Source: Stachybotrys elegans (lineage: Eukaryota; Ascomycota; Sordariomycetes; Hypocreales; Stachybotryaceae). Taken from it: DNA of 64,000 nucleotides. The translations under genes and the position numbers were made by a program. Of this stretch, positions 23,644 to 26,420 are shown piece by piece (the first letter of the stretch is position 1; the number at the start of each line of letters is the position of its first letter). The notes beneath the pieces were generated by a model. That model was not told the DNA's origin. It saw only the letters and a program-made list of their open reading frames with translations, and searched no databases. The DNA lies in the NCBI GenBank assembly GCA_020746835.1, contig JAGPNK010000004.1, positions 1,426,001 through 1,490,000 on the forward strand, given 5' to 3'.

Positions 23644-26420
23644 CTACCTCAGGTTAGCAGTAGTCATTTCTGCTCCTCGCTGGCAGTCACGGTCACAATG
23701 TCCTCCATCCCCCATCATAGTCGTCGCGATAATGCCACCAGCTTCATTTTCATCATGCATTCTACCCCAAGCTTCGCCTATGATCTCAATAGTAACATCT
23801 GCCTTTGGTGTTTTGGCTCTCTCCGCGAATTGCAATACATGCCTAAGCAAATCTTTCATCTCGACCTTTATACCATCGAGCGATAGTCGAGCATCAAACG
23901 GCACACCGTCAACATCGGTGATGACTCCTCCCAGTTCTCTCCCAGCAAAATCTGAATCCAGGTTGCTCTCAAATCTCCTTCAATGCGCCAAGTTCAGTGC
24001 TCTCCTCACTACCCCTCAGATCCATCCCGGCTGATGATGCGGGCAGCATACCGTGGCCATGAGCTCAGCAGCTGTCTCTTCATACGTTTCATCCTCGCCT
24101 ATCACAATCTTGTACGACAAACGAGACAGTCGTTCGGCTTCGCTCACTAAATCGGGCGCCATTCGTCGGTATATGTCAGCGAGGAGCCGCCAGACATCAG
24201 GATGTGTTATGTGCGAATGCCCCCATTTCTTGATGAAGAATGGCGCTCCCTCCTCTCGCGGAAGTGTTCCACCCTCGATAACGAACCCGAGCGATCTGAA
24301 GGACCTCAGGAGCATGTTGACAGCTTTGATGGGCGTATTCTGGTGATCGAATCGTCGCCCCAAGTAGACTTGAACTTCCCAGAGCTGGGATCGCGGTATC
24401 TCCAGGTCAGGCACGGTGTAAGTCGTTTGGAGCTCCAACATTGCCACTTCACATTGCCTTGTCGCATCCATGTCGTCCAAGCTCTTGTTAACTTCCTCGT
24501 TGAAGAGCTCCATGATAGCATCCCGCATGCCTTGAGTCTCCTGGTCTGTTTCTTCAAGGTTGGTGCATAGAGCACAGGTGCATCGAAATCCCTAACATGC
24601 AATGCCCTTTTTGAAAACTTTGAAGGTCGAAGGCCGCGGTCTTGGCTCGTATTCATGCGTCAACTCGCTCCCTGCAGCAATGTCCTGCGAGGCCCGGATG
24701 ATCGCCATATCACCGATCACACTGCGTCGGGTGTTGCCAAGGCAGTTGTGATTCATTGCTGCCATCTTTAGCCAGAGGCCAGTGGCGCTCTCGTAATCAT
24801 CGTCGCCCTTTGAGGGCCTGGCTTGGCTGGTTTTTCCACTTAGTACTCGGAGGAACTCATCTCGCGTCGATACCGGGCCTTCGAACAGGTTTTGCTTGAG
24901 CTTTTCCAAGGCTCGCCATCTATCAGGGTTAGCAAAGAGCTATCCGGGATAATCAACACTTCCCACTTACAGATTCATAGTCGGAACGCCATCCACTTCG
25001 CAGACTTCGAGAGGCTTATTACCGGATCGGATTTCCTTGAAAGAGTTGATGAGGGATGGGTTGCCTCGAAGCCTCCCTATGATCGTCTGCATCATGGCGT
25101 ATGCATATTTTGGCAACTTGGCCTCCGGTTCTACGCAGACCAGCTCAGGCGTGCTCAGCGTTTCTCCTCCATATTCATGGTTGTACGAGATGTACGCAAA
25201 TGCTTTCTCACACAAAACCAGATCGCCGGCTTTCAAGTCTTGGGTGGCAAAAAGGCCGCGGCCTCGGTCTCCTGTTTCGCGAACTTCGACGGGGCCAATG
25301 TAGGAGGCACGGTCGAGGAAAGGCGACTTGACGACCCTCATCTCGGCGTACAAGTCTCTGAAGCAATAGTTGCCACGGCTATGCTCTATCATGCGCTTCA
25401 TGCATTGGCTGTAGGACTTTGAACCCTCCAAGGTACGGTTCTTCCCGCTCGCGATAGGTTGAAGGGCGACCAAGGCTTCTCTCCATTGCTCTAGGTTATA
25501 GTGTGCTTGTGCCATGCGGAGGATGAGCTTCTCATTGGGCTCGCGAAGTTCACAGGCAGCTTTGCAGTCATTCAAAGCAAGCTCCCATTCTTCCGTCTTT
25601 GCGTACGCCTTGGAGCGGTTAATGTAGGCGAGGAAAATGTCGTCCGATGTGATAGAGGGGCATTTCAAGGCCTGATAGTAGCTGTTGAGGGAGGTCAGTC
25701 TCGGTTTCTGGCGCCATTTCAGTTCGGGACTTACCTCTTGATGGCATCGAACGGTCTGCCGGCGTTAAATTCGCCCACACCCTGCAGTCGCCAGTCGCCA
25801 GCTCCCTTCGCTGTGCCGGTCTTCTTCTTGCGCCACTTGGACGGAATTCTCTCGTCGTCCTCTGCGAGAAGCTCGAAGTCGGAAGGGTGAATGACTTGGA
25901 TCATGCAGTATCCATCCAGCGTGAGCTTCAAGTACGGCTCCTTGACCACGGCTACTTCCCCCTTGGTAATGATGGCCTTGGCTGGGCGAACTTGCTCGTG
26001 CGGCTGGAAGTACAGGCTGAGACCAATCACGTGGCCCTTCTCGTCCTCCACGATGGTATTGATGCAGACCTCTCGGTCTGGATCGGTGACGGCCCGCAAG
26101 AGGAGATATTTCCCCTCGTGCCGAGTCTCCTGCAGCAGCTTGTGGATCGTGACCTTTTGAAGGTCCGCAAACGGCTTGAGGGAGACGGGGCCAGGGGGGG
26201 CGATGAAGGCATAGAACCTGTCCATCGGCTTTAGGGGCGCGATGGCCAGGCCCTGTGCCACGGCGGCGGCGTCCTGCTCCTTCCCCTCGACCTTGGCGGC
26301 GTGATGAAGGATCAGGTCATCACGCCGGGGCCTTCTGGCCGGGACTCGGCCCTTTCGGCCACTCTCTCTCTCCATCAGCGCCTTGTAGCGCTCCATGGTC
26401 TCTCTCGCAGGTGGTGCCAT
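23644..26420 (-). CDS. TPR-SET domain protein interrupted by an in-frame UAG
   Basis: Exons 26420-25735, 25681-24971, 24919-24052 and 23967-23644 join in phase. With codon 575 read as an amino acid the product is 862 aa; with UAG as stop it is 574 aa. TPR-like helices lie at about residues 225-310 (FNAGRPFDAIK...ALNDCKAACELR...YNLEQWREALVAL). The SET domain follows: ETGDRGRGLFATQDLKAGD at its start, MNHNCLGN (the N-H-x-C motif) and AAGSELTHEYEP. Then comes IAC-UAG-GFRCTCALC, where family members have W-G-F-x-C-x-C-x-x-C, so the stop replaces the conserved Trp. The downstream part (about 287 codons) is helical, family-like and continues through a further intron (84 bp, 24051-23968; the acceptor is weak). 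SET proteins of this TPR type are putative lysine methyltransferases. See the findings for the editing hypothesis; a pseudogene is the alternative. Confidence 0.8.
24592..24594 (-). other. In-frame UAG at conserved post-SET Trp; candidate A-to-I editing site
   Basis: The codon is TAG in the coding strand, preceded by GGC ATT GCA TGT and followed by GGA TTT CGA TGC ACC TGT. A single A-to-G change gives TGG (Trp), restoring the W-G-F-x-C-x-C post-SET motif. The target A has U at -1 and G at +1. Neighbouring bases TGCAT and ATGCA (24597-24601 and 24579-24583) can pair to place the UAG in a 13-base loop. Confidence 0.6.

What the first reader, a model, noticed from the sequence alone, without database searches (positions are those of the whole stretch)
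24592..24594. In-frame UAG exactly at the invariant Trp of a SET protein: candidate editing-dependent gene
Seen: the TPR-SET gene reads IAC-UAG-GFRCTCALC, while the post-SET motif of this family is W-G-F-x-C-x-C-x-x-C. One A-to-G change (UAG to UGG) restores the Trp and the whole 862-aa protein. The frame on both sides is family-like. Established: A-to-I mRNA editing independent of ADAR occurs in sexual stages of Fusarium graminearum and Neurospora crassa, favours A preceded by U, and corrects premature UAG codons to UGG in several otherwise disabled genes. Inference: this gene is translated in full only when edited, so vegetative cells would make a 574-aa form lacking the post-SET zinc site. 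A strain-specific nonsense mutation is the main alternative. A homopolymer error would not give a substitution.
Basis: partly seen in the sequence, partly recalled or inferred. Interest (0 to 1): 0.88.

Follow-up and report, generated by a model that had tools for sequence, protein, structure and literature searches.

The report
Stop codon probably erased by RNA editing
A fungal methyltransferase-like gene carries a stop codon exactly where its relatives have a conserved tryptophan; the surrounding sequence and the rest of the genome suggest that the fungus rewrites this codon in its RNA, as related fungi do for some dozens of genes, but no RNA data were available to prove it.

Summary
The in-frame TAG is real: minus strand, 24594-24592, in a TPR-SET (SMYD-like) gene of Stachybotrys elegans (Hypocreales). 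38 of 39 readable relatives have Trp there. The native protein is 766 aa, not 862; the 574-aa truncated form is right. The public model (749 aa) skips the TAG and the zinc motif with a 51-nt "intron"; published work shows that automated annotation invents such introns over edited UAG codons.
For editing: the A has the Fusarium-preferred base at all six published positions and lies in a predicted hairpin loop. Sequence after the TAG is no more decayed than sequence before it. The same genome keeps in-frame TAGTAG in what looks like its PUK1 ortholog, the founding edited gene, and has a DUF726 protein with the Ame1 signature.
Against or missing: no RNA, no close ortholog or second strain; a fast-evolving paralog family in which another S. 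elegans copy has lost the Trp; whether the species has a sexual stage was not checked.
Best reading: premature-stop-correction A-to-I editing (about 0.65). Rivals: recent nonsense mutation (0.20), splicing of the 51-nt segment (0.10). A new member of a known kind.

The parts
24592..24594 (-). In-frame TAG, codon 575, at the conserved post-SET Trp; candidate edited A at 24593
25735..26420 (-). Exon 1 (ATG at 26420)
24971..25681 (-). Exon 2: TPR region and start of the SET domain
24016..24919 (-). Exon 3: rest of SET, TAG, post-SET CxCxxC motif and C-terminal region, native stop at 24016-24018
24565..24591 (-). GFRCTCALC, the post-SET zinc motif directly after the TAG
24576..24608 (-). Predicted RNA hairpin (fold with 20-nt flanks) with the A of the TAG in its loop
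24546..24596 (-). 51-nt in-frame segment (GTTAGG...ACAG) that the public model P0001 removes as an intron; probably an annotation artefact, possibly a spliced alternative

Best explanation
The TAG is a premature-stop-correction site. In cells where the Tad2-Tad3-Ame1 deaminase acts on mRNA (in Fusarium and Neurospora mainly the sexual fruiting body), the middle A is deaminated to inosine, UAG is read as UGG (Trp), and the 766-aa SMYD-like TPR-SET protein with its post-SET zinc site is made. Where editing is off, a 574-aa form ends before the zinc site and is probably inactive. Shown here: the codon, its position, its context, the retained downstream frame, and the PUK1-like and Ame1-like companions in the genome. 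Inferred: that editing happens at this site, at which stage, and that the truncated form is inactive.
For: Trp in 38 of 39 readable relatives. Preferred base at all six positions of PMC9600606; 30 of 1050 window TAGs do as well. A in the hairpin loop of the minimum-energy fold at all eight flanks of 15-100 nt, ensemble probability 0.68-0.99. Of 11 Trp positions in the gene only this one has both six of six and a loop. Two of 15 conserved columns changed after the TAG against 27 of 108 up to it. PUK1-like gene with TAGTAG at D-W-W-S-I-G. DUF726 gene with MV 31 residues before the Ser, the Ame1 signature of PMC11087585. Public model skips the TAG by a short intron, as published for 69 edited genes and CHE1.
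Against: No RNA. No ortholog closer than 38% identity listed, so TAG conservation is untested. Paralog C10 tolerates loss of the Trp, and this copy evolves faster than its paralogs upstream. The +2 and +3 G come with the conserved Gly, and 11-21% of 398 control TAGs reach its hairpin probability, so neither is strong alone. RID, DCP1 and RhoGAP family matches gave no second PSC case. No MAT alpha-box match (uninformative control).
Confidence: 0.65

Rival explanations
1. A recent nonsense mutation (G to A) in a dispensable, fast-evolving paralog of this strain or species; the gene now makes only a 574-aa fragment.
For: Single isolate; two paralogs could cover for it; C10 has lost the same Trp; 29 of 123 conserved columns changed here against 18 and 16 in the paralogs.
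Against: Only 3-8% of possible nonsense changes are TGG to TAG, and this one falls at the only Trp with both favourable context and loop. No second disabling change and no excess change after the stop, so it would have to be recent.
Confidence: 0.2
2. The public model is right: the 51-nt segment 24596-24546 is spliced out in frame, giving a 749-aa protein without the post-SET zinc motif.
For: GT...AG ends, length a multiple of three and like the gene's other introns of 53 and 51 nt. FgBUD14 has both editing and alternative splicing at its stop.
Against: It removes a motif kept by the relatives. Donor GTTAGG is unlike those of seven of the eight other S. elegans introns read (five GTAAG, two GTGAGT); the eighth, C10 intron 1, is unclear, perhaps GTGGGC. 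The public PUK1-like model of this genome loses a conserved kinase segment in the same way.
Confidence: 0.1
3. A base-calling or assembly substitution; the genome really has TGG.
For: A single assembly is held, with no reads to check.
Against: The held genome and the public protein P0001 agree that the site cannot be read through, but both probably come from one assembly (contig length 2728842 in both), so this is not independent.
Confidence: 0.03
4. Ribosomal readthrough of UAG gives some full-length protein without editing.
For: The downstream frame is open and family-like.
Against: The following bases GGATTT match no readthrough motif that I recall, and near-cognate tRNAs would not insert Trp (recalled).
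Confidence: 0.02

Closest known systems
PUK1 of Fusarium graminearum and other premature-stop-correction (PSC) genes (69 more; AMD1, FgRID, FgAMA1, FgBUD14)
   Same: In-frame UAG at a conserved Trp of a catalytic domain; public model with a short intron over the stop (PMC4817773 passages; PMC11156358 parts 1 and 2 of 3).
   Different: Editing is demonstrated there by RNA-seq; here it is predicted. A SET protein is not among the PSC genes named in the passages I saw; the supplementary tables were not seen.
CHE1 of Fusarium graminearum
   Same: Single UAG before a zinc-binding domain, hairpin loop, erroneous small introns in some species (PMC11169179 passages and section 7).
   Different: CHE1 is edited in hyphae and is a transcription factor; its stop is conserved in related species, which could not be tested here.
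SMYD lysine methyltransferases (SMYD2, SMYD3)
   Same: SET plus CxCxxC post-SET motif: relative P0007 aligns with SMYD3, its W-G-F opposite Y-C-F.
   Different: Fungal TPR-SET architecture with an N-terminal extension; activity unknown.

Membership tests
Fungal PSC A-to-I editing site | In-frame UAG inside an otherwise intact coding frame | tested here: met
Fungal PSC A-to-I editing site | UGG would give the residue conserved in relatives | tested here: met
   38 of 39 rows W; C10 paralog is R
Fungal PSC A-to-I editing site | Preferred bases at -2 to +4 and a hairpin loop | tested here: met
   six of six; loop
Fungal PSC A-to-I editing site | A/G mixture in RNA with genomic A | not testable with these tools
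   no RNA data
Fungal PSC A-to-I editing site | TAG conserved or alternating with TGG in close relatives | tested here: inconclusive
   two searches brought no close ortholog; distant relatives have W
Fungal PSC A-to-I editing site | Species has the editing machinery and other PSC genes | tested here: met
   Ame1-like gene; PUK1-like TAGTAG; Tad2 and Tad3 were not searched
SMYD-like TPR-SET protein | SET domain with GxG, NHxC and catalytic Tyr | tested here: met
   GRG, NHNC and the Y of ELTHEY are present
SMYD-like TPR-SET protein | Post-SET CxCxxC | tested here: met
   CTCALC present, but after the TAG
SMYD-like TPR-SET protein | Methyltransferase activity | not testable with these tools
   needs biochemistry

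The most novel reading that the evidence does not exclude
A three-state methyltransferase gene. The candidate edited A is position +4 of the 5' splice site of the in-frame 51-nt segment, so editing and splicing would compete: unedited, unspliced RNA gives a 574-aa stub, spliced RNA a 749-aa protein without the zinc motif, and edited RNA the 766-aa enzyme. Editing would be a developmental switch on a SET enzyme in Stachybotryaceae.
Probability: 0.08. Interest if true: 0.72.

Novelty: new member of a known kind. Interest (0 to 1): 0.52.

Why it matters
If true, a SMYD-like SET protein is made in full only after RNA editing, which would tie a likely lysine methyltransferase to the stage in which editing runs. 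The PUK1-like tandem stops and the Ame1-like gene also suggest that mRNA editing reaches the Stachybotryaceae, and give a cheap cDNA test with an internal positive control. The case shows again that public fungal gene models can hide edited stops behind short false introns.

Tried and rejected
An intron ending at the TAG itself: the nearest donor (24618) gives only 27 nt, and 24664 (73 nt) would delete the ELTHEYEP strand; neither is credible.

RIP as origin: the change is of RIP type (C to T at CpA on the other strand), but TA/AT is 0.50 and (CA+TG)/(AC+GT) 1.45 over the gene, outside the RIP range as I recall it.

An old pseudogene: no second disabling change and no lower conservation after the stop.

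Other named Fusarium PSC genes by family: DCP1 (1 match) and DNA methylase (3 matches) have no stop inside the matched domain, and the two RhoGAP matches with a TAG have it in introns by my reading. This is negative or uninformative, since the published stops may lie outside these domains.

Truncated SET-family models as a footprint of the same stop elsewhere: of seven short models read none ends just before the Trp; P0016, marked partial, ends just after it.

The third protein search, with an alignment, brought no closer relative; in all three searches only about 8000 candidates were scored. PDB search with the C-terminal piece: no hit. Rfam and tRNA scans of the window: nothing. MAT alpha-box: no match, uninformative control. 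No structure was predicted.

Full report
Observation. On the minus strand a gene runs from ATG at 26420 through exons 26420-25735, 25681-24971 and 24919-24016. Codon 575 is TAG (24594-24592); 574 codons lie before it and 191 after it in the same frame. The pieces match TPR (below the cut-off) and SET. The best database match is the public Stachybotrys elegans model P0001, listed as 100% identical over the query, on a contig of 2728842 bases, the length of this window's contig. The organism is thus S. elegans, a Hypocreales Sordariomycete.

What the TAG replaces. Of 46 hits, 40 and the C-terminal piece were aligned (six short hits left out). 39 rows can be read at the position: 38 have W, one M. 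It is the W of W-G-F-x-C-x-C-x-x-C, which in relative P0007 aligns with the SMYD3 post-SET motif. The genome holds two paralogs: C7, with WGF, and C10, with RRF. The Trp is strongly but not absolutely conserved.

The public model. P0001 (749 aa) reads ...KKGIAY-QETQG..., so a 51-nt segment, 24596-24546, was treated as an intron. It begins GTTAGG. Of eight other S. elegans introns read here, five begin GTAAG, two GTGAGT, and one (C10 intron 1) is unclear, perhaps GTGGGC. The segment holds the CxCxxC motif. PMC4817773 (passages) reports 69 F. graminearum genes besides PUK1 in which automated annotation put introns over edited UAG codons; PMC11169179 (passages and section 7) reports small false introns over the CHE1 stop in some species. 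In this genome the public PUK1-like model P0047 likewise drops the conserved kinase segment with TAGTAG. FgBUD14 is a published case where editing and alternative splicing both occur (PMC11156358, parts 1 and 2 of 3 read), so splicing stays a rival.

Editing context. PMC9600606 (outline, sections 6 and 7) gives preferred bases at -2 (C/U), -1 (U), +1 (A/G), +2 (G), +3 (A/G) and +4 (A/G), and over 62% of sites in predicted hairpin loops. This site is UUAGGGA, six of six; 30 of 1050 TAGs on both strands of the window do as well. The G at +2 and +3 come with the conserved Gly, so this is less surprising than 3% suggests. The A is in the hairpin loop of the minimum-energy fold at all eight flanks from 15 to 100 nt (at 12 nt nothing folds), with ensemble probability 0.68-0.99; 21%, 15% and 11% of 398 control TAGs reach the observed value at flanks of 15, 30 and 50 nt. 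Of the ten other Trp codons, tested as if each were TAG, one has six of six but lies in a stem; two lie mostly in loops but have four and two of six. In the first 574 codons 3-8% of possible single-base nonsense changes are TGG to TAG, by transition weight.

Selection after the stop. Against 24 of the 45 relatives (P0002-P0015, P0017-P0026), 123 columns are at least 95% conserved. This gene departs at 29 (27 of 108 up to and including the TAG column, 2 of 15 after it), C10 at 18 (16 and 2), C7 at 16 (16 and 0). Mean identity to the relatives is 0.475 in the post-SET stretch (C10 0.394, C7 0.425), 0.283 in the C-terminal part (0.249, 0.308) and only 0.299 in the SET part (0.420, 0.451). The part after the TAG is not relaxed; the upstream part is the fast one. 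This speaks against an old dead stop, not against a recent one.

Is the genome editing-competent? Of 136 protein-kinase matches listed (123 of 240 candidates scored), 13 have a TAG inside. All 13 were read, with two RhoGAP and one further SET match: in 15 of 16 I judged the TAG to lie in an intron or at the edge of the match; one has TAGTAG at D-W-W-S-I-G. Its part before the stop finds NDR-type kinases of Hypocreales and other Sordariomycetes (120 of 1388 listed). Of these 120 (P0047 included), by pattern, 66 keep SQYMAPE but skip CDWW, 14 end at CD or CDW, 21 have WW, 15 lack SQYMAPE and 4 are other. That is the tandem-stop pattern described for PUK1 in PMC4817773; I did not align the F. graminearum protein itself. 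Its first A has five of six preferred bases and loop probability 0.71, its second three of six and 0.98. A DUF726 search gave three genes. One, in L019, has MV 31 residues before the catalytic Ser, the spacing of M500-V501 and S531 in FgAme1 (PMC11087585, passages and section 17); the other two do not.

Verdict. Premature-stop-correction editing is the best explanation (0.65), ahead of a recent nonsense mutation (0.20) and splicing (0.10). Nothing here shows RNA. On print: a search for Stachybotrys with RNA editing listed one paper, on mycotoxin degradation, and one for SET domain, A-to-I, stop codon and perithecia listed one, on histone acetylation; both were seen as listings only, and the library lacks most subscription journals. 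A new member of a known kind.

Noticed in passing
L031 (G000:C1:2086500-2092500), TAGTAG from position 3951: PUK1-like NDR kinase with in-frame tandem TAGTAG at the conserved D-W-W-S-I-G; the public model P0047 drops this segment.
   Followed up: yes
L019 (G000:C45:1636000-1640000): DUF726 gene with MV 31 residues before the catalytic Ser, like FgAme1; two further DUF726 genes lack it.
   Followed up: partly
L009 (G000:C10:514500-518800): Paralog C10 of the SET gene has Arg-Arg-Phe where relatives have Trp-Gly-Phe.
   Followed up: partly
window 21338-22946 (minus strand): Neighbouring open frames on the same strand (372 and 159 aa) may be one spliced gene; not searched.
   Followed up: no
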